From contig NZ_JAHSTY010000002.1 of the NCBI RefSeq assembly GCF_019145355.1, forward strand, positions 1-64,000: a stretch of DNA of 64,000 nt, given 5' to 3'. Positions 5,518 to 13,831 of the stretch are shown here, one piece after another. The notes beneath the pieces are model-generated. The model did no database searches, was not told the DNA's origin, and saw only the letters and a program-made list of their open reading frames with translations. The position numbers and the translations under genes were made by a program. Numbering within the stretch: position 1 is the stretch's first letter; the number at the start of each line of letters is the position of its first letter. The stretch comes from Pseudomonas azadiae (GTDB lineage Bacteria > Pseudomonadota > Gammaproteobacteria > Pseudomonadales > Pseudomonadaceae).

Positions 5518-6618
5518 ATGCGCAGCACTTTCCTGCCCTTTGCTTTGCCTATCAGTCTGGTGTACCTGCTGGCCGGTTGCGGCCATGAAGAGGCGGTCCA
5601 GACCGCGGTTCGCCCGGCGATGGTGGTGCAGCCACAGCCTGCTTCGCAGTCGATGGACAGCTACCCCGGTGAAGTACGCGCACGCTATGAGCCGGACCTG
5701 GCCTTTCGCATCGGCGGCAAAGTCAGCAAGCGCCTGGTGGAGGAGGGTGAGCGGGTCAAGGCCAACCAGGCGTTGGCGGAGCTCGACCCGCAGGATGTGC
5801 GCCTGCAGTTGGAAGCGACTCGCGCCCAAGTCGCCGCCGCCGAGGCCAATCTGAGCCTGGTGCGTGCCGAGCGCGACCGCTACAAGACGCTGATGGACCG
5901 TCAGATGGTCAGCCGTTCCCAGTACGACAATTCCGAAAACCTCTACCGAGCAGGTGTTGCACGCCTCAAGCAGATCAAGGCGGAGTTCGACGTGGCCAGC
6001 AACCAGGCGGGCTACGCGGTACTGCGTGCGCCCCAGGACGGAGTGGTTGCCAAGCGCGCGGTGGAGGTCGGCCAAGTCGTGTCCGCTGGCCAGACCGTGT
6101 TCACGCTGGCGACCGATGGCGACCGCGAAGTGCTGATCAGTCTGCCGGAGCAGGGTTTCGGCCGCTTCGAGATCGGCCAGCCGGTATCGGTTGAACTGTG
6201 GAGCCAGCCCGACCAGCGCTTCAGCGGACGTATTCGTGAGCTGTCGCCGGCGGCCGATCCCAAGTCGCGTACGTTCGCTGCCCGCGTGGCGTTCACCGGC
6301 GGCAAGGTCCCGGCTGAGCTGGGCCAGAGCGCTCGCGTGTTCATACAGGCTGAAGGTGCTACCCCCCTGTCGGTGCCGCTGTCTGCCGTCAGCGCCGAGA
6401 ACGGTGCGTCCTATGTCTGGCGTGTGCAGCGAGGCAATACCCTCAAGCGCGTGCCGGTTCGCATCGGCGCCTTTGGTGAAAAAACCGTCCCGGTGCTCGA
6501 AGGCCTGACCCCGACGGATTGGGTCATCGCCGCCGGCGTGCATGTGCTCCACGAGGGCCAGCAAGTGCGCCCGGTGGATCGCTCCAACCGTGTGGTGAAT
6601 CTGGCGGCCAAGGAGTAG
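5518..6618 (+). CDS. RND efflux periplasmic adaptor subunit (lipoprotein)
   Basis: The 366-residue membrane-fusion protein has a lipoprotein signal peptide with lipobox LLAGC (Cys21), so it is probably lipidated and anchored to the inner membrane facing the periplasm. The split lipoyl-like domain (about residues 50-75 and 165-200) flanks an alpha-helical hairpin (about 95-150), followed by beta-barrel and membrane-proximal domains. It joins the RND permease to an outer-membrane channel. The permease gene starts five bases downstream. No outer-membrane factor is encoded here, so the pump probably borrows a TolC/OprM-like channel encoded elsewhere. Confidence 0.92.
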   Translation: MRSTFLPFALPISLVYLLAGCGHEEAVQTAVRPAMVVQPQPASQSMDSYPGEVRARYEPDLAFRIGGKVSKRLVEEGERVKANQALAELDPQDVRLQLEATRAQVAAAEANLSLVRAERDRYKTLMDRQMVSRSQYDNSENLYRAGVARLKQIKAEFDVASNQAGYAVLRAPQDGVVAKRAVEVGQVVSAGQTVFTLATDGDREVLISLPEQGFGRFEIGQPVSVELWSQPDQRFSGRIRELSPAADPKSRTFAARVAFTGGKVPAELGQSARVFIQAEGATPLSVPLSAVSAENGASYVWRVQRGNTLKRVPVRIGAFGEKTVPVLEGLTPTDWVIAAGVHVLHEGQQVRPVDRSNRVVNLAAKE

Positions 6619-6623
6619 TCCCC

Positions 6624-9600
6624 ATGGGTTTCAATCTTTCCGAATGGGCGTTGCGTAATCGCCAGATCGTACTGTTCCTGATGATTCTGCTGGCCGTCGT
6701 CGGCACCTTGTCCTACTCCAAACTGGGACAAAGTGAAGACCCGCCGTTCACCTTCAAGGCGATGGTGATCAAAACCAACTGGCCCGGCGCGACGGCCCAG
6801 GAAGTCTCGCGGCAAGTCACCGAACGCATCGAGAAAAAACTCATGGAGACCGGTGAGTACGAACGCATTGTTTCCTTCTCGCGCCCCGGTGAATCCCAGG
6901 TCACCTTTATGGCGCGTGACGCCATGCATTCGGCGCAGATCCCCGAGTTGTGGTACCAGGTGCGCAAGAAGATCGGCGACATCCGCCAGACCTTGCCGCC
7001 GGACATCCAGGGACCGTTTTTCAACGATGAATTCGGCACCACCTTTGGCAATATCTACGCCCTGACCGGCGAGGGTTTCGACTACGCCGTGCTCAAGGAC
7101 TACGCAGATCGTATCCAGATACAACTGCAGCGTGTAGCGGATGTGGGCAAGGTCGAGCTGCTTGGCCAGCAAGACGAAAAAATTTGGATCGAACTGTCCA
7201 ACCTCAAGCTCGCCACCCTCGGCTTGCCCTTGGCAGCGGTGCAACAGGCGTTACAGGAGCAGAATGCGGTCTCCACCGCCGGCTTCTTTGAAACGCCTAG
7301 CGAACGCGTGCAACTGCGCGTGTCGGGCAACTTCCAGAGCGTCGAAGAAATCCGCAACTTCCCGTTACGCGTCGGTGACCGAACCTTGCGCATCGGCGAT
7401 GTGGCCGACATCCACCGTGGTTTCAATGACCCACCGGCACCGCGCATGCGCTTCATGGGGGCGGACGCCATTGGCCTGGCCGTGGCCATGCGTGACGGCG
7501 GTGACATTCTGGTACTGGGCAAAGCGCTGGAAGGCGAATTCGCACGCCTGCAGAAGAATCTTCCGGCGGGCATGGAGCTGCGCAAGGTGTCGGACCAGCC
7601 GGCGGCGGTGAAAACCAGCGTCGGCGAATTCGTGCAAGTGTTGGCCGAAGCCTTGGCCATCGTGCTGCTGGTGAGTTTCTTCTCCCTCGGTGTTCGCACT
7701 GGCATGGTGGTGGCTTTGGCGATTCCGCTGGTGCTGGCGATGACGTTTGCCACCATGTATTACCTCGGCATCGGCCTGCACAAGATCTCGCTCGGGGCCC
7801 TGGTGTTGGCGTTGGGTTTGCTGGTGGATGATGCCATCATCGCCGTGGAAATGATGGCGATCAAAATGGAGCAAGGCTATGACCGGCTCAAGGCCGCCAG
7901 CTTCGCCTGGACCAGCACCGCGTTCCCGATGCTCACGGGAACGCTGATCACGGCGGCGGGCTTCCTGCCGATTGCCACCGCGCAGTCGAGCACCGGCGAG
8001 TACACCCGTTCGATTTTCCAGGTCGTGACCATTGCGTTGCTCGCTTCCTGGGTCGCCGCCGTGGTGTTCGTGCCTTACCTGGGCGAAAAACTCCTGCCGG
8101 ACCTGGCGAAAATTCATGCAGCCAAGCACGGCACCGATGGCCCGGATCCCTACGGCACACCCTTCTACCAGCGCGTCAGGCGCGTGGTGGAGTGGTGCGT
8201 GCGGCGGCGTAAAACCGTGATCGTGCTGACCTTGCTGCTGTTTATCGGTTCGGTCGCCCTGTTCCGTTTCGTACCGCAGCAGTTCTTCCCGGCGTCCGGT
8301 CGTCTGGAGCTGATGGTTGACCTGAAGCTGGCCGAAGGCACCTCGTTAAGCAACACCGCCGAGCAGGTCAAGCGCCTGGAAGGGCTGCTCAAGGGCCACG
8401 CCGGCATTGACAACTATGTGGCCTATGTCGGCACGGGTTCGCCGCGCTTTTACTTGCCGCTGGACCAGCAGTTGCCGGCCGCCAGTTTTGCCCAGTTGGT
8501 CGTAGTGGCTAAAACCATCGAGGAACGTGAAAGCCTGCGCACCTGGCTGATCGAAACCCTCAATGAACAATTCCCCGACCTGCGTTCACGCGTCACGCGG
8601 CTGGAAAACGGCCCGCCCGTGGGCTACCCGGTGCAGTTTCGCGTGACCGGCGAGCATATCGAAGAGGTGCGTGCCCTGGCACGCAAAGTGGCGGCCAGGG
8701 TTCGCGAGAATACCCACGTGGTCAATGTGCACCTGGACTGGGAAGAGCCCAGCAAGATCGTCTACCTCAATATCGACCAGGACCGCGCCCGTGCCCTCGG
8801 CGTGAGCACGGCCGACCTGTCGAAATTCCTGCAGCGTTCGTTGACCGGCTCCAGCGTCAGTCAATACCGGGAGGACAACGAGTTGATCGAGATTCTCCTG
8901 CGCGGCACCGTGCATGAGCGCACCGAACTGTCATTGCTGCCGAGCCTGGCAGTGCCCACCGACAATGGCAAAAGCGTGGCGCTGTCGCAGATCGCCACCC
9001 TCGAATACGGCTTCGAAGAGGGCATCATCTGGCACCGCAACCGCCTGCCAACGGTGACCGTCCGCGCGGATATCTATGGCAAGGAGCAACCGGCGACGTT
9101 GGTCCAGCAGATCCTGCCCACCCTCGAAGGCGTGCGTGCCGAGCTGCCGGACGGTTACCTGCTGGATGTTGGCGGTACGGTCGAGGACTCCGCCCGCGGC
9201 CAGAACTCGGTCAAGGCCGGCGTGCCGCTGTTTATCGTGGTGGTGTTGACCCTGTTGATGCTGCAACTGCGCAGTTTCTCCCGCACGGCGATGGTGTTTC
9301 TGACCGCGCCGCTGGGGCTGATCGGGGTGACGTTGTTCCTGCTGGTATTCCGTCAGCCTTTCGGCTTCGTGGCGATGTTGGGCACCATCGCGCTGTCGGG
9401 CATGATCATGCGTAATTCGGTGATCCTGGTGGACCAGATCGAACAGGACATCAAGGCCGGCCTGGCACCCTGGCAAGCGATCATCGAAGCCACCGTCCGA
9501 CGCTTCCGTCCGATTGTGCTGACCGCCCTGGCGGCGGTGCTGGCAATGATTCCGCTGTCGCGCAGTGTGTTCTTCGGGCCAATGGCCGTCGCGATCATGG

Positions 9601-9692
9601 GTGGGTTGATTGTGGCGACGGCGTTGACGTTGTTGTTTCTGCCGGCGCTGTATGCGGGATGGTTTCGCGTCAAGAACGAAACTCGGCCATAA
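6624..9692 (+). CDS. RND efflux transporter permease (HAE1-like)
   Basis: The 1022-residue inner-membrane proton/drug antiporter starts at ATG 6624 (MGFNLSEWALRNRQIV); upstream in-frame starts lie inside the adaptor gene. It has the RND layout: one N-terminal helix, a large periplasmic loop, five helices, a second periplasmic loop and a C-terminal helix bundle. The proton-relay aspartates D402-D403 are present in the fourth helix (GLLVDDAIIAVE). The pump substrate cannot be read from sequence. It is cotranscribed with the adaptor and controlled by the divergent TetR gene. Confidence 0.93.
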   Translation: MGFNLSEWALRNRQIVLFLMILLAVVGTLSYSKLGQSEDPPFTFKAMVIKTNWPGATAQEVSRQVTERIEKKLMETGEYERIVSFSRPGESQVTFMARDAMHSAQIPELWYQVRKKIGDIRQTLPPDIQGPFFNDEFGTTFGNIYALTGEGFDYAVLKDYADRIQIQLQRVADVGKVELLGQQDEKIWIELSNLKLATLGLPLAAVQQALQEQNAVSTAGFFETPSERVQLRVSGNFQSVEEIRNFPLRVGDRTLRIGDVADIHRGFNDPPAPRMRFMGADAIGLAVAMRDGGDILVLGKALEGEFARLQKNLPAGMELRKVSDQPAAVKTSVGEFVQVLAEALAIVLLVSFFSLGVRTGMVVALAIPLVLAMTFATMYYLGIGLHKISLGALVLALGLLVDDAIIAVEMMAIKMEQGYDRLKAASFAWTSTAFPMLTGTLITAAGFLPIATAQSSTGEYTRSIFQVVTIALLASWVAAVVFVPYLGEKLLPDLAKIHAAKHGTDGPDPYGTPFYQRVRRVVEWCVRRRKTVIVLTLLLFIGSVALFRFVPQQFFPASGRLELMVDLKLAEGTSLSNTAEQVKRLEGLLKGHAGIDNYVAYVGTGSPRFYLPLDQQLPAASFAQLVVVAKTIEERESLRTWLIETLNEQFPDLRSRVTRLENGPPVGYPVQFRVTGEHIEEVRALARKVAARVRENTHVVNVHLDWEEPSKIVYLNIDQDRARALGVSTADLSKFLQRSLTGSSVSQYREDNELIEILLRGTVHERTELSLLPSLAVPTDNGKSVALSQIATLEYGFEEGIIWHRNRLPTVTVRADIYGKEQPATLVQQILPTLEGVRAELPDGYLLDVGGTVEDSARGQNSVKAGVPLFIVVVLTLLMLQLRSFSRTAMVFLTAPLGLIGVTLFLLVFRQPFGFVAMLGTIALSGMIMRNSVILVDQIEQDIKAGLAPWQAIIEATVRRFRPIVLTALAAVLAMIPLSRSVFFGPMAVAIMGGLIVATALTLLFLPALYAGWFRVKNETRP

Positions 9693-9815: not shown

Positions 9816-10271
9816 CTAGAAGTTGGGCAGCTTTTTGTCGACCGTTTTAATAATTGACGTATTGGTGTCGGCCAGTGGCGTGATTTTTTGCAGCGTCAGG
9901 TCCAAGTGTCCCACCGACTCTGTATAGAGATGGCAAACGAAACTGTCTTCTCCGGTTATTTTGTAGCACACCACGCATTCGCTCATGTTTGTAAGTAACT
10001 GTTCCACCTCCTGGAACTTTCCTGTCAAGGGTTTAACCCTGACTAGTGCTTGCAGTACATACCCCAATGCCTCGGCGCCCAGTTCGACGCTGAACCCGAC
10101 GATGATACCTGCCACCTCCAAACGCTTGAGGCGCTCGCTGCAACCTGGCGCGGACAGACCCACCTGACGACCCAGTGCGCGAATAGACGTGCGTGCGTTC
10201 TGATGGAGGGCAACAATCAGCGCGCTATCAATAGAGTCTAATTTATGGCCGCTCTTTGTAAGCTTTTTCAT
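9816..10271 (-). CDS. Lrp/AsnC-family transcriptional regulator
   Basis: The 151-residue protein starts at ATG 10271 (MKKLTKSGHKLDSIDSALIV); the longer open frame extends through the AT-rich intergenic region without a convincing start. The N-terminal winged helix-turn-helix spans about residues 12-60 (LGRQVGLSAPGCSERLKRLE). The C-terminal RAM/ACT-like domain (about residues 75-145) usually binds an amino acid. It is divergent from the halogenase gene by a 165-base AT-rich region. Lrp-type regulators beside LysE exporters commonly sense the exported amino acid, so it may respond to the product or substrate of this cluster. Confidence 0.9.
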   Translation of the reverse strand: MKKLTKSGHKLDSIDSALIVALHQNARTSIRALGRQVGLSAPGCSERLKRLEVAGIIVGFSVELGAEALGYVLQALVRVKPLTGKFQEVEQLLTNMSECVVCYKITGEDSFVCHLYTESVGHLDLTLQKITPLADTNTSIIKTVDKKLPNF

Positions 10272-10436
10272 TAGGGAGACCTTACGAACATTGATGAAAT
10301 AGCGTGAAATTATTACATACCACAGATCCCTAAAAAAAGAATGGATTTTTTTAAGTATCCTGCCTATGGTTTTTGTGCAGTCATGCGCAGTACTGTGCTG
10401 TTTTTTTTGACTTAATCTATTTATCGAGGAGTTCAA
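10272..10436. promoter_or_regulatory. AT-rich divergent control region of the halogenase block
   Basis: The region is clearly richer in A+T than its surroundings, with A-tracts around 10333-10340 and T-tracts around 10347-10353 and 10402-10409. These are typical of bendable DNA bound by Lrp-type proteins. GAGGAG at 10424-10429 is the ribosome-binding site for the halogenase. I cannot define single -35/-10 boxes with confidence. Confidence 0.5.
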
Positions 10437-11201
10437 ATGAACTACGTACTTGATGAGGCTCGTCTGCAACAATACCATGCCGATAATTTTTCCGAAAAAA
10501 GAGTGTTTGCGTTGCGTAATGAATTTTCGCGTAATGGCTTTATAAAATTGCGCGATATCGTCGATGACGCATTACGCGAAACAATAACTGCGGATGTCCA
10601 TAGTCTGATCGAGCGCCAACTCGAACGTCGTGACCTGCACTTGGCAACAACCGATAACACACCGCGCTACATGAGCGTGGTACGCAGTGAATTTATTGCT
10701 GAAAACAGCCCGTTGATCGGTGCGCTGTCCAAATCCGACGTGCTACTCGGCACGTTGTCTTTAATCGCCAACACGCGGATCGTCGCTTCCGTTTCCCAGG
10801 ATGAGGAGTTCCTGATCACAAAGCAGGAGCGCAAAGGCGATACCCATGGCTGGCATTGGGGTGACTACAGTTTCGCGTTGATCTGGATCATTGAGACACC
10901 TCCCATCGCCAAGGGCGGCATGTTGCAATGTGTGCCTCATACCTCATGGGATAAATCCGATCCCAGGATTCACGAACTGTTGTGCAGTAATCCGATTGCC
11001 ACTTATGGCTTCACGACAGGGGATATTTATTTCCTGCGCACGGATACCACGCTGCACCGCACAATTCCACTGAATGAAGATGCCACTCGCATCATCCTGA
11101 ACATGACATGGGCTGCTGAAAAAGATCTCTCCAGAAACCTGCACGGCAATGATCGTTGGTGGGAAGACCAACACGCAGAGGCTGCAAAAAGCCTGGCATA
11201 G
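10437..11201 (+). CDS. BesD/Hal-like Fe(II)/2-oxoglutarate amino-acid radical halogenase
   Basis: The 254-residue protein lacks carrier-protein features and has a non-haem iron/2-oxoglutarate fold. The iron site reads H140-W141-G142 with distal H207; glycine replaces the carboxylate of hydroxylases, which in known halogenases frees a site for chloride. R218 is placed to bind 2-oxoglutarate. Residues R77, E123, H137, D143, N222, T224, W241 and W242 match, at a constant +3 offset, the lysine-binding and iron-site residues I recall for BesD (R74, E120, H134, H137, G139, D140, H204, N219, T221, W238, W239). The likely reaction is chlorination of a free basic amino acid such as lysine or ornithine; position and substrate are inferred. 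It is first in a rightward operon after a strong ribosome-binding site. Confidence 0.82.
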   Translation: MNYVLDEARLQQYHADNFSEKRVFALRNEFSRNGFIKLRDIVDDALRETITADVHSLIERQLERRDLHLATTDNTPRYMSVVRSEFIAENSPLIGALSKSDVLLGTLSLIANTRIVASVSQDEEFLITKQERKGDTHGWHWGDYSFALIWIIETPPIAKGGMLQCVPHTSWDKSDPRIHELLCSNPIATYGFTTGDIYFLRTDTTLHRTIPLNEDATRIILNMTWAAEKDLSRNLHGNDRWWEDQHAEAAKSLA

Positions 11202-11233
11202 AGCACTAAAATTCCACCCACGGGATGACGATC

Positions 11234-12550
11234 ATGCACGATATCCGCTGCTTGCAGCACGCCAGTACCTTACTCAAACAGGCGCAGTCGCACGCGGCCA
11301 TGGCTGACCTGGTTCGCGCGGCGGTAGTTCGTAATGAACAATGGCGCGGGCAGCAGTGCATTAACCTTGTGGCCGCCGAGTCACCGACCAGCCCGTCCGT
11401 GCGCGCCTTGCTGTCCAGTGAGGTCGGCACGCGCGCTTCGGGCGGGCATATTGGACGTGACAACCGTTTTTTCTCCGGTATGAAGAATATCGACGAGCTG
11501 GAATCGCTTTGCGTGGAATTATTGAAAACCACGTTTCGCGTCCAGCACGCCGATCATCGGCTGATGGGGGGCATGGCAGCCGTTCTGGCGGCGTACACGG
11601 CTTTGACCCGTCCCGAAGACAATGTCATGACCGTACCGGTGATTAGGGGAGGCGATACCAGCAATCGGACCAATGGCCCGCCTGGTGTAAGGGGGCTCAA
11701 GGTTTGGGATGTTCCCTTTGTGCACAAGACCAGTGATATCGATCTCACGCGTTTCAGCGAAGTTGCCCAAACCCTCAAACCAGCCGTGATTGGCCTCGGC
11801 ATGACATTGACCCTGTTTCCCCTGCCGGTTTCTGACATCAAAGGCATCGTTTCACCCTGGGGTGGAAAGGTCTATTTCGACGCCGCCCACCAATTGGGCT
11901 TGATCAGTGCCGGCCTGTTTCAGGACCCGCTGGCGGAAGGTGCGGACCTGATGACCGGTTCTTCCGGAAAAACGTTCAGCGGCCCCCAGGGCGGTGTGAT
12001 CGTGTGGAATGAGACGGCGTTGACGGCACCTGTGCATGAGGCGATTTTCCCCACGCTGACCGGCAGTCACCAGATCAACCGGGTGGCGGCACTCGCGGTG
12101 GCTGCCACCGAGATGCTGGAGTACGGGCAGGCCTACATGAAGCAAGTCGTGAGTAACGCACAGGCGCTGGCCACGCACTTGGATCTTAGGGGCGTGACCG
12201 CTTTTTATAGAGAGCAGGGTTACACCCGTACTCATCAGATTGTGATCGATTCAAAGCCTTTTGCCAGCGGTCGTGAGGCCGTGGAACGCCTGGAGGCGGC
12301 CAACATCATCACCAACGAAATGCCACTGCCGTGGGATACGGACCCCTACAAGGAATCGGGTATTCGCCTCGGTACTGTGGAAGTGACTCGGCTGGGCATG
12401 AAAGAGCGGGAGATGGCATGGATAGCCGACCAGATTGTCAGCGTATTGCTGCATAAAGAGGACCCGATGGCAGTTGCCAACGGTGTGATCGATTTCATGA
12501 AGAACTACAGAACTGTCTATTACTGCCATGAGAACGGACTACCCCGCTAG
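11234..12550 (+). CDS. SHMT-fold PLP enzyme with altered active site
   Basis: The 438-residue fold-type I PLP enzyme resembles serine hydroxymethyltransferase: NLVAAESPTSPSV near the N-terminus, FDAAHQLG (D216, H219) for the cofactor ring, SSGKTFSGPQGG with the Schiff-base lysine K246, and SGIRLG with the carboxylate-binding R378. The SHMT segment KYAEGYPGKRYYGG is replaced by TRASGGHIGRDNRFFSG, so the catalytic Glu and three of its Tyr are lost. It is therefore unlikely to be the folate-dependent housekeeping enzyme. Aldol-, transaldol- or elimination-type chemistry on the halogenated amino acid is inferred. I chose ATG 11234, nine bases after CGGGA, over ATG 11225, which lacks a ribosome-binding site. 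Confidence 0.8.
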   Translation: MHDIRCLQHASTLLKQAQSHAAMADLVRAAVVRNEQWRGQQCINLVAAESPTSPSVRALLSSEVGTRASGGHIGRDNRFFSGMKNIDELESLCVELLKTTFRVQHADHRLMGGMAAVLAAYTALTRPEDNVMTVPVIRGGDTSNRTNGPPGVRGLKVWDVPFVHKTSDIDLTRFSEVAQTLKPAVIGLGMTLTLFPLPVSDIKGIVSPWGGKVYFDAAHQLGLISAGLFQDPLAEGADLMTGSSGKTFSGPQGGVIVWNETALTAPVHEAIFPTLTGSHQINRVAALAVAATEMLEYGQAYMKQVVSNAQALATHLDLRGVTAFYREQGYTRTHQIVIDSKPFASGREAVERLEAANIITNEMPLPWDTDPYKESGIRLGTVEVTRLGMKEREMAWIADQIVSVLLHKEDPMAVANGVIDFMKNYRTVYYCHENGLPR

Positions 12551-12571
12551 TCATTCTCAAAGGAGGCTCAT

Positions 12572-13189
12572 ATGCCCGACACCGTCGTTTCCGTTTATCA
12601 GGCCACGTTGACCTTTGCCGTCGCTGCCATCGCGTTGCTCGCCAGTCCCGGTCCGGCAACATTGGCACTGGCGGCAAGTGGCGCCGCTTATGGCCTGAAA
12701 CGTTCGGTTGGGTTTTTTGCCGGGATTACGCTGGGCTTGGTGATTGCCATGACATTGGTTGCCACGGGCCTGTATGTGGTATTGCACAGCTTTCCGATAA
12801 TGGCGACGGTGCTGACCGTCCTCTCCATCTTTTATATGGTTTGGCTGGCTTATCGCATTGGAACTGCGCCGCCCATCAAGGATGAACAAGCCGTCGTCAC
12901 GCCAGGCTGGGGAGCCGGTTTTTTTCTGGGAGCCGCCAACGTCAAGGCCTATGCCGCGTTTGCGGCGCTGCTGGGCAGTTTTACCCTGGGTACGGCGCCA
13001 GCCTGGGAACAAGCGATGAAGGCTTTGATTTGTCTGTTGGTTTGCGTGGTGTTCGATTTCCTATGGTTATTTGCGGGGAGCAAGTTGCGCCGATTATTCA
13101 TCCATCCCACTTGGAGCCGAGTACTCAACGTCAGCTTTGCGATTTTAATGATAGCGACGGTCGCCTGGTCCTTCACGCTGACGCAATAG
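12572..13189 (+). CDS. LysE-family amino-acid exporter (first copy)
   Basis: The 205-residue inner-membrane protein has about six hydrophobic segments and the LysE/RhtB signature LLASPGPATLALAASGAAYG in the first helix region. The family exports amino acids such as lysine, homoserine or threonine by proton antiport. A strong AGGAGG at 12561-12566 precedes the ATG. It follows the SHMT-like gene by 21 bases, so it is in the same operon. Export of the halogenated product or an intermediate is inferred from context. Confidence 0.88.
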   Translation: MPDTVVSVYQATLTFAVAAIALLASPGPATLALAASGAAYGLKRSVGFFAGITLGLVIAMTLVATGLYVVLHSFPIMATVLTVLSIFYMVWLAYRIGTAPPIKDEQAVVTPGWGAGFFLGAANVKAYAAFAALLGSFTLGTAPAWEQAMKALICLLVCVVFDFLWLFAGSKLRRLFIHPTWSRVLNVSFAILMIATVAWSFTLTQ

Positions 13190-13237
13190 CGCTATCGGTG
13201 GAAAAACGCTATATCATTTCCCGCCGAGGATTTACCC

Positions 13238-13831
13238 ATGCTTGGAACCGTTTCTGCATTGGCGCTGCTGTTGGTGGTGCCTGGCCCGACCAACACGCTG
13301 TTGCTGCGCGCAGGGGTGTTGTTTGGCTTCATGGCGTCCTGGCGGCTGGCGTTCATCGAGTGCGTGGCGTATCTGATACAGGTATCGGTGTGGGGTGGCT
13401 CGCTGTTCTACCTGTCAGCCTGGTCGCCGTGGGTGGTTAGAGCGACGCAACTGGCCGCTGCATGCTATCTGCTCTTTCTCTCCTGCTCGTTGTGGCAGCG
13501 CAAGAATGGCGGAGGCAATCCTGACCGCGATCGCTTTTCAGGGCCGTCTTTCTTTTTGCTGACGGTGATGAATCCCAAGGGCTTACTGATCGTTTCATTC
13601 ATCGCGCCGATGGATGCCTTCGTTACCCTGCACGGGTATGCCGCCTTCATGAGCACCCTGGCGTTGGTCATCATACCGGTGGGCTCCACGTGGATTCTGT
13701 TTGGCAGCCGAATCACCGGTACAAACAAGACTTGGCTGACGCCCCTGAAGATTAACCGGGCAACCTCCATTGCAATCGGGTGCTTTGCGACACTGATGAT
13801 AGGGCGTCTGGCTGGTTCGGTCCTGCATTAG
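13238..13831 (+). CDS. LysE-family transporter (second copy)
   Basis: The 197-residue membrane protein carries the family signature VVPGPTNTLLLRAGVLFG right after the start and the second-half motif VMNPKGLLIV, with about six hydrophobic segments. It is only distantly similar to the preceding LysE copy, so this is not a recent tandem duplication. It begins 48 bases after that gene on the same strand. Two distinct exporters may serve different products or act as a pair. Confidence 0.83.
   Translation: MLGTVSALALLLVVPGPTNTLLLRAGVLFGFMASWRLAFIECVAYLIQVSVWGGSLFYLSAWSPWVVRATQLAAACYLLFLSCSLWQRKNGGGNPDRDRFSGPSFFLLTVMNPKGLLIVSFIAPMDAFVTLHGYAAFMSTLALVIIPVGSTWILFGSRITGTNKTWLTPLKINRATSIAIGCFATLMIGRLAGSVLH

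What the first reader, a model, noticed from the sequence alone, without database searches (positions are those of the whole stretch)
9816..13831. Compact block for making, modifying and exporting a chlorinated amino acid
A BesD/Hal-like radical halogenase, an SHMT-fold PLP enzyme and two LysE-type exporters lie in one rightward operon, divergent from an Lrp/AsnC-type regulator. BesD-type halogenases act on free amino acids without a carrier protein, so a four-gene operon could suffice to make and release a small halogenated metabolite. Known BesD context uses other partner enzymes, so a halogenase/SHMT-like pair would be a different route. The end product is inference.
Basis: partly seen in the sequence, partly recalled or inferred. 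Interest (0 to 1): 0.93.

Follow-up and report, generated by a model that had tools for sequence, protein, structure and literature searches.

The report
Lysine-chlorinating, ring-forming amino acid gene cassette
Four neighbouring Pseudomonas genes most likely put a chlorine on lysine only to knock it off again, closing a small three-carbon ring, and then pump the unusual amino acid out; this looks like the published pazamine route rather than a new pathway, and the fifth gene of the block is probably a bystander.

Summary
The genes are real and placed as described: Lrp/AsnC regulator (9816-10271, -), BesD/HalA-type halogenase (10437-11201), SHMT-fold PLP enzyme (11225-12550), LysE1 (12572-13189), LysE2 (13238-13831). 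The halogenase keeps all 11 BesD active-site positions checked. The SHMT-like enzyme keeps the PLP core but has Gly for Glu57 and Asp for His126; of 398 Pseudomonas genomes, exactly the 7 with a full-length close halogenase have it. The pair plus a LysE exporter recurs in Paraburkholderia and six Legionella loci; BesD itself and cyanobacterial relatives sit beside a haem-oxygenase-like gene. Best reading: the pazamine route (PazA/PazB, Sosa et al. 2024; primary paper not held, details recalled): lysine, 4-chlorolysine, chloride-expelling cyclopropane closure, export. Chlorine would be cryptic, so 'a chlorinated amino acid' is probably wrong for the product. The mobile unit is Lrp-Hal-SHMT-LysE1; LysE2 is a resident of the neighbouring RND operon. 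Not seen in the papers I could search: four loci have lost both enzymes yet keep regulator and exporter (one cut by its contig end), which suggests self-protection. A known kind of pathway, useful in its details.

The parts
9816..10271 (-). Lrp/AsnC-type regulator, 151 aa; part of the mobile four-gene unit
   Evidence: PF13404, PF13412, PF01037; ATG at 10271 as likely start; conserved in L001-L007, L023, L024 and in loci that lost the enzymes
10272..10436 (.). divergent promoter spacer, 35% GC, with a conserved block around CTTACGAA and CTTACATACC
   Evidence: alignment of the window with nine Pseudomonas loci, one of them the decayed L054; GC; operator role is inference
10437..11201 (+). BesD/HalA-type Fe(II)/2OG lysine halogenase (likely lysine 4-chlorinase, PazA-like)
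   Evidence: PF23169 3.6e-90; aligned without gaps to BesD 6NIE over residues 25-253; R77, E123, H137, H140, G142, D143, H207, R218, N222, D239, W241 all present (roles from passages)
11225..12550 (+). SHMT-fold PLP enzyme, likely ring-closing (PazB-like)
   Evidence: PF00464 9.4e-42; PLP Lys249 kept, Glu57->Gly73, His126->Asp144, His228->Gly248 (GlyA numbering checked); co-occurs with and follows the halogenase in 7 of 7 genomes
12572..13189 (+). LysE1, LysE-type exporter of the mobile unit
   Evidence: PF01810 6.7e-14; in all 7 intact Pseudomonas genomes; a LysE gene also follows the pair in the Paraburkholderia locus and in 6 of 6 Legionella loci
13238..13831 (+). LysE2, LysE-like gene of the insertion site (resident beside the RND gene), not part of the conserved unit
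   Evidence: 46 of 398 genomes have it at E<=1e-40, among them 6 of the 7 halogenase genomes; lies 11 bases from the end of the RND match with no cassette in 6 of 6 genomes that I picked at 69-75% identity

Best explanation
A horizontally spread four-gene cassette (lrp - hal - shmt-like - lysE1) that makes and exports a cyclopropane amino acid by cryptic chlorination. Step 1: the halogenase, with iron(II), 2-oxoglutarate, oxygen and chloride, chlorinates free L-lysine at C4. Step 2: the SHMT-fold PLP enzyme binds 4-chlorolysine as the external aldimine, removes the alpha proton and lets the alpha carbanion displace the C4 chloride, closing a C2-C3-C4 cyclopropane: pazamine, an analogue of the plant ethylene precursor ACC. 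Loss of the SHMT Glu57 and replacement of the PLP-stacking His126 by Asp fit an enzyme that no longer does folate or serine chemistry; the Asp may hold the lysine-derived ammonium group. Step 3: LysE1 exports the amino acid, under control of the divergent Lrp-type regulator that senses lysine or the product. Shown here by sequence: gene content, active-site residues, obligate pairing, mobility. Inferred: substrate, both reactions, product, export, regulation. Recalled and not read here: that PazA chlorinates lysine C4 and PazB makes the cyclopropane in P. azotoformans, and the roles of SHMT Glu57 and His126.
For: Halogenase: 11 of 11 BesD positions kept in the window and in 25 of 25 loci of its branch (L001-L024, L029); none of the other 26 rows has both D239 and W241. 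HalB is named a lysine 5-chlorinase in a passage seen. Partner: the same 7 of 398 Pseudomonas genomes carry both genes, adjacent; 15 of the 56 loci have the SHMT-like gene next to the halogenase: 8 Pseudomonas, 1 Paraburkholderia, 6 Legionella. Active-site pair: among 220 database homologues 159 have Glu/His, 60 Gly-or-Ser/Asp, 1 gap/Asp, none mixed; all 15 halogenase-linked loci and the window have Asp. Contig lengths shared with the listed halogenases: 11 of 61 Asp-type, 0 of 156 His-type (a proxy for same contig). Exporter in the same unit. Mobility: L005 and L023 share with each other and with the window only the lrp-lysE1 block; lower GC than flanks. Literature: Sosa et al. [quoted passage not shown] pazamine named in a passage of PMC12514951; PfHalA makes chlorolysine, passage of PMC8407142.
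Against: The PazA/PazB paper and sequences could not be read, so identity of the SHMT-like gene with PazB is inferred from its being the only PLP gene found always beside this halogenase. The halogenase is below NCBI's BesD equivalog cut-off (325.8 of 450 bits). The Asp-type SHMT-likes are not one clade: the His-type group nests inside them on a tree rooted on GlyA with a long branch. The SHMT-paired halogenases form two well-supported clades (Legionella; Pseudomonas plus Paraburkholderia); one clade is not rejected (AU p 0.142) but not shown.
Confidence: 0.83

Rival explanations
1. The SHMT-like enzyme acts on 4-chlorolysine but by another reaction (gamma elimination to an unsaturated amino acid, gamma substitution by an outside nucleophile, or aldol chemistry), so the exported compound is a different non-protein amino acid.
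For: Sequence cannot distinguish these; the enzyme is only family-level similar to solved SHMTs (best 4uqv) and no PazB sequence was available. SHMT folds do take up other chemistry: the fluorothreonine transaldolase of S. cattleya (1207 bits over a cut-off of 650) matches the window protein at 32%.
Against: A halogenase plus PLP enzyme route to strained amino acids is already published (title seen; organism and cyclopropane outcome recalled); the transaldolase keeps the His at position 126 and the His before the PLP lysine, both lost here.
Confidence: 0.1
2. 4-chlorolysine itself is the released product and the SHMT-like enzyme works on something else.
For: LysE-type exporters often carry lysine-like amino acids (general knowledge); the halogenase alone can make chlorolysine (PfHalA, passage).
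Against: In Pseudomonas the SHMT-like gene is in 7 of 7 genomes with a full-length close halogenase and 0 of the other 391, and no decayed locus that I opened keeps an intact copy of one of the two, so they behave as one pathway.
Confidence: 0.05
3. The iron enzyme is a lysine hydroxylase and the operon makes a hydroxylysine derivative.
For: Related lysine hydroxylases exist (7jsd, 9oet).
Against: Gly142 replaces the Asp iron ligand and N222 is present as in BesD, while the aligned hydroxylase 9oet has Asp and Val there.
Confidence: 0.02

Closest known systems
PazA/PazB pazamine pathway of Pseudomonas azotoformans (Sosa et al. 2024, Angew. Chem. e202319344; not readable here, organism and outcome recalled)
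   Same: Pseudomonas; BesD-family lysine halogenase plus one PLP enzyme; chlorine used and lost
   Different: sequence identity and gene order of the published cluster could not be compared; whether it includes the Lrp and LysE1 genes is unknown to me
BesD pathway (beta-ethynylserine) of Streptomyces cattleya
   Same: same halogenase family, 55.7% identity, aligned without gaps over residues 25-253
   Different: the S. cattleya locus (L088) has a haem-oxygenase-like gene after the halogenase and no SHMT-like match within 8 kb either side; that this gene is BesC is recalled
Other branches of the BesD family (HalB, HalD, HalE types; which locus is which type is recalled, not tested)
   Same: Fe/2OG amino acid halogenases, several in Pseudomonas
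   Different: none of the 26 other rows has both D239 and W241; L025, L026, L039, L041 and L044-L046 have a haem-oxygenase-like gene beside the halogenase
Serine hydroxymethyltransferase (GlyA) and fluorothreonine transaldolase
   Same: fold and PLP-binding core
   Different: Glu57, His126 and His228 of GlyA are Gly, Asp and Gly here; the genome has two GlyA genes elsewhere

Membership tests
BesD/HalD halogenase family (PF23169) | score over Pfam cut-off | tested here: met
   301.8 bits against 26
BesD/HalD halogenase family (PF23169) | HxG in place of HxD at iron, second His, Asn222 | tested here: met
   H140, G142, H207, N222
BesD equivalog (NF042920, L-lysine 4-chlorinase BesD) | NCBI equivalog cut-off 450 bits | tested here: not met
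   325.8 bits; so not filed as BesD itself
BesD equivalog (NF042920, L-lysine 4-chlorinase BesD) | lysine-binding residues R77, E123, H137, D143, D239, W241 | tested here: met
   all present; roles from passages of PMC13244439
BesD pathway | haem-oxygenase-like partner next to the halogenase | tested here: not met
   no such gene among the five; present in L088 and seven cyanobacterial loci
Pazamine (PazA/PazB) pathway | lysine halogenase adjacent to a dedicated PLP enzyme in Pseudomonas | tested here: met
Pazamine (PazA/PazB) pathway | sequence orthology to P. azotoformans PazA and PazB | not testable with these tools
   paper and sequences not held; no P. azotoformans name stands in the rows listed
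Pazamine (PazA/PazB) pathway | C4 chlorination of lysine and cyclopropane closure | not testable with these tools
   needs enzyme assay
Serine hydroxymethyltransferase | NCBI subfamily cut-off (NF000586, 335 bits) | tested here: not met
   302.7 bits
Serine hydroxymethyltransferase | Glu57 and His126 of the active site | tested here: not met
   Gly73 and Asp144; catalytic roles of these two residues recalled
Fluorothreonine transaldolase (TIGR04506) | NCBI equivalog cut-off 650 bits | tested here: not met
   214 bits
LysE exporter family, LysE1 | PF01810 over cut-off | tested here: met
   52.2 bits against 25.6
LysE exporter family, LysE2 | PF01810 over cut-off | tested here: not met
   19.7 bits against 25.6

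The most novel reading that the evidence does not exclude
The SHMT-like enzyme is not PazB: a Glu57-to-Gly, His126-to-Asp SHMT turned into a 4-chlorolysine-processing enzyme gives an undescribed amino acid, with its own regulated exporter as self-immunity, spread among Pseudomonas, Burkholderiaceae and Legionella. A milder form that I think more likely (about 0.35): the product is pazamine, but its ecological role includes poisoning neighbouring bacteria, since strains that lose the two enzymes keep the Lrp regulator and LysE1 as intact genes.
Probability: 0.1. Interest if true: 0.75.

Novelty: new member of a known kind. Interest (0 to 1): 0.42.

Why it matters
It gives a compact, mobile, four-gene route to a strained amino acid and a two-residue sequence signature (Gly73/Asp144) that separates these enzymes from true SHMTs, so proteins annotated 'glycine hydroxymethyltransferase' that carry it can be re-examined. 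Loci that kept exporter and regulator after losing the enzymes make the question of what the compound is for directly testable.

Tried and rejected
Considered the block as a five-gene pathway unit: rejected for LysE2. Considered BesC-like oxidative cleavage: no such gene among the five. Looked for an ACC deaminase that might open the ring: only a below-cut-off homologue in the genome (232.7 of 392 bits). Looked for the pathway on plasmids: 35 records matched, the best the S. cattleya megaplasmid at 55.7%, none at 60% or more. Literature searches for pazamine, PazA, PazB, BesD with SHMT and cryptic halogenation listed no held paper that I recognised as describing this operon; most listed papers were not opened, and the library lacks most subscription journals. 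LysE1 against LysE2 shows no significant similarity (best E 2.1). A structure prediction was not run because the fold is clear from sequence and the tool's description promises no coordinates.

Errors of mine, not used in any count: the second GlyA was read on the wrong strand (put right); BesD positions were first read with a numbering three off (put right after the passages); the Lrp cut of L002 was out of frame and left unused.

Rows dropped: the halogenase table holds 52 rows; L031 and L056 fell to my length filter, as their matched stretches hold in-frame stops, and L049, L054 and L055 were never entered as partial. The halogenase tree further left out L032, L047, L048, L050 as short. The SHMT tree used 75 rows, thinned by hand from 238 aligned. 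The contig-length comparison used 119 of 120 listed halogenases (one has no contig), all 61 Asp-type and 156 of 159 His-type proteins. Protein lists were capped at 120 rows of 2920, 492 and 688 matches.
Full report
WHAT IS THERE. Pfam assigns the divergent gene to Lrp/AsnC, the first rightward gene to HalD (the BesD family), the second to SHMT and the third to LysE; the fourth reaches LysE only weakly, 19.7 bits against a cut-off of 25.6. The regulator most likely starts at 10271, giving a 165-bp spacer of 35% GC with a block conserved between the window and nine Pseudomonas loci, one of them decayed. The gaps between the rightward genes are 23, 21 and 48 bp.

THE HALOGENASE. It aligns without gaps to BesD (6NIE) over residues 25-253. 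In the numbering used in PMC13244439 (passages read) the iron ligands H140 and H207, the Gly142 that leaves room for chloride, the succinate contacts R218 and N222 and the lysine contacts R77, E123, H137, D143, D239 and W241 are all present; the same 11 letters stand in 25 of 25 loci of its branch (L001-L024, L029), and none of the other 26 rows has both D239 and W241. BesD is a lysine 4-chlorinase (title) and HalB a lysine 5-chlorinase (passage) in PMC10187165; PfHalA makes chlorolysine (passage of PMC8407142). So free lysine, C4, is the best guess for substrate and site. NCBI's BesD equivalog cut-off is not reached (325.8 of 450 bits), so it is a family member and not BesD.

THE SHMT-LIKE PARTNER. 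The genome has two GlyA genes elsewhere. Against them the window protein keeps the PLP lysine (K229 of GlyA), D200, H203 and the arginine of the GxRxGT stretch, but Tyr55, Glu57, Tyr65, His126 and His228 have become Ala, Gly, Phe, Asp and Gly (main GlyA numbers checked). That Glu57 and His126 serve SHMT catalysis and PLP stacking is recalled. In 220 database homologues the two positions change together: 159 Glu/His, 60 Gly-or-Ser/Asp, 1 gap/Asp, none mixed (the lists behind it are capped at 120 rows each). The window and all 15 halogenase-linked loci are Asp-type; L018 has Ser and not Gly at position 57, and L019 Arg at 228. The fluorothreonine transaldolase of S. cattleya keeps the His. Halogenase contig lengths recur among 11 of 61 Asp-type and 0 of 156 His-type proteins (a proxy, since contigs themselves were not opened). 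On a tree with the two columns masked, the His-type group lies inside the Asp-type, so the Asp-type is not one clade, or the long GlyA root misleads.

THE PAIR IS OBLIGATE. In the same 398 Pseudomonas genomes, 22 have any BesD-family match, 7 of them full length at 82% or more; the SHMT-like gene at E<=1e-60 is in 7, the same 7, directly downstream on the same strand (one search scored at most 4 candidates per genome). Of the 56 named loci, 15 have the pair: 8 Pseudomonas, 1 Paraburkholderia, 6 Legionella. A LysE gene follows the pair in the Paraburkholderia locus and in 6 of 6 Legionella loci, all 6 of which have a divergent LysR-type regulator in place of Lrp. Seven cyanobacterial loci and a gammaproteobacterial MAG have a haem-oxygenase-like gene by the halogenase instead (domain confirmed for L008, L015 and L022), as does the S. 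cattleya BesD locus. On the halogenase tree the SHMT-paired rows and these eight rows separate with one change (98/90), but against all rows the SHMT-paired ones need two, the Legionella and Pseudomonas/Paraburkholderia clades being split by two actinobacterial rows with weak support; one clade is not rejected (AU p 0.142). The haem-oxygenase-like neighbour also occurs in seven loci of another branch (L025, L026, L039, L041, L044-L046), so that pairing is not one clade.

THE UNIT IS FOUR GENES, INSERTED. L005 and L023 carry the genes at other places and share with each other and with the window only the stretch from lrp to the end of lysE1 (blastn E<=1e-10). Around 20 DUF4197 genes of relatives, the RND gene ends within 350 bp of the DUF4197 gene in 9, lies farther off or behind a LysE2 in 2, and is outside the fetched stretch in 9, two of which carry LysE1 and LysE2 there. 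LysE2 (E<=1e-40) is in 46 of 398 genomes, 40 of them without the full unit, and absent from 1 of the 7 with it; in 6 of 6 genomes that I picked at 69-75% identity (L116-L121) it lies 11 bases from the end of the RND match with no cassette. A seventh picked genome (L122, 50%) has it elsewhere, and G004 (59%) has it at this site without the cassette. The simplest reading is that the cassette landed between the RND gene and its neighbour LysE2. Halogenase GC 0.50 against flanks of 0.61 fits arrival by transfer.

DECAYED COPIES. LysE1 (E<=1e-40) is in 11 of 398 genomes: the 7 with the full unit and 4 without it. Of these four, G222 (by its coordinates the P. reactans locus L054) keeps Lrp, a halogenase fragment, LysE1 and LysE2 and has lost the SHMT gene; G199 and G219 keep Lrp and LysE1 with no significant trace of the enzymes (G219's contig ends inside LysE1); G290, at another place, keeps Lrp at 50%, two short SHMT-like vestiges (21 residues, E 1.7e-4; 35 residues, E 0.009; against 921 bases only) and LysE1 at 54%. 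A fifth genome, G362 (by its coordinates L049), keeps scraps of halogenase and LysE1 and an intact LysE2. LysE1 in the three complete remnants is an open frame with pairwise dN/dS of 0.06-0.19 where it could be computed, though some synonymous distances exceed 2. Pairwise values include the time before the loss, so this is suggestive only. Keeping a regulated exporter after losing the enzymes is what one expects if the compound harms cells that take it up.

HOW IT MOST LIKELY WORKS. Lysine is chlorinated at C4; the PLP enzyme deprotonates the alpha carbon and the carbanion displaces chloride, closing a cyclopropane; LysE1 exports the product; Lrp controls the unit. [quoted passage not shown] 2024, seen in reference lists) and the name pazamine (one passage of PMC12514951). 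That the organism is P. azotoformans, that PazA is a lysine C4 halogenase, PazB the ring-closing PLP enzyme, and that the compound may affect plant ethylene are recalled from the abstract and were not read here. That the window's SHMT-like gene is PazB is inferred from its being the only PLP gene found always next to this halogenase.

NOVELTY AND VERDICT. What I did not see described in the searches (an open-licence library, most listed papers not opened) is the four-gene mobile unit with its exporter, the Gly/Asp signature, the Legionella and Paraburkholderia relatives, and the regulator-plus-exporter remnants. Overall interest 0.42.

Noticed in passing
L054, L113, L115, L114 (and L049): Pseudomonas loci where the halogenase and SHMT-like genes are deleted or decayed while the Lrp regulator and LysE1 remain (LysE1 cut by the contig end in L115; only LysE2 intact in L049); possible self-protection module.
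   Followed up: partly
L014, L016, L017, L018, L019, L029: Six Legionella loci carry halogenase, SHMT-like gene and LysE exporter in the same order, with a LysR-type regulator; these are not known to me as plant bacteria, which makes a purely ethylene-related role of the product less likely.
   Followed up: partly
His-type proteins among P0039-P0120 and P0258-P0340: A large group of SHMT-like proteins, 53-56% identical to the window's where compared with it, keeps Glu57 and His126 but has Gly for His228; the few named ones include Chloroflexota; real function unclear.
   Followed up: no
L008-L013, L015, L022: Cyanobacterial and one gammaproteobacterial BesD-like halogenases sit beside haem-oxygenase-like genes, suggesting alkene or alkyne amino acid pathways; L008 also has an arginase-family gene nearby.
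   Followed up: partly
L020: Catenulispora halogenase with the 4-chlorinase-type residues lies in a region with an ATP-grasp ligase domain, 6-pyruvoyl-tetrahydropterin synthase and GTP cyclohydrolase genes, a third kind of context.
   Followed up: no
L031 8001-8693: P. frederiksbergensis AS1 halogenase-like gene of another branch has an in-frame stop near its start and looks broken.
   Followed up: no
window 5518-9692: RND efflux genes (HlyD-type adaptor and AcrB-type pump; domains) directly left of the cassette, the likely original neighbours of LysE2.
   Followed up: partly
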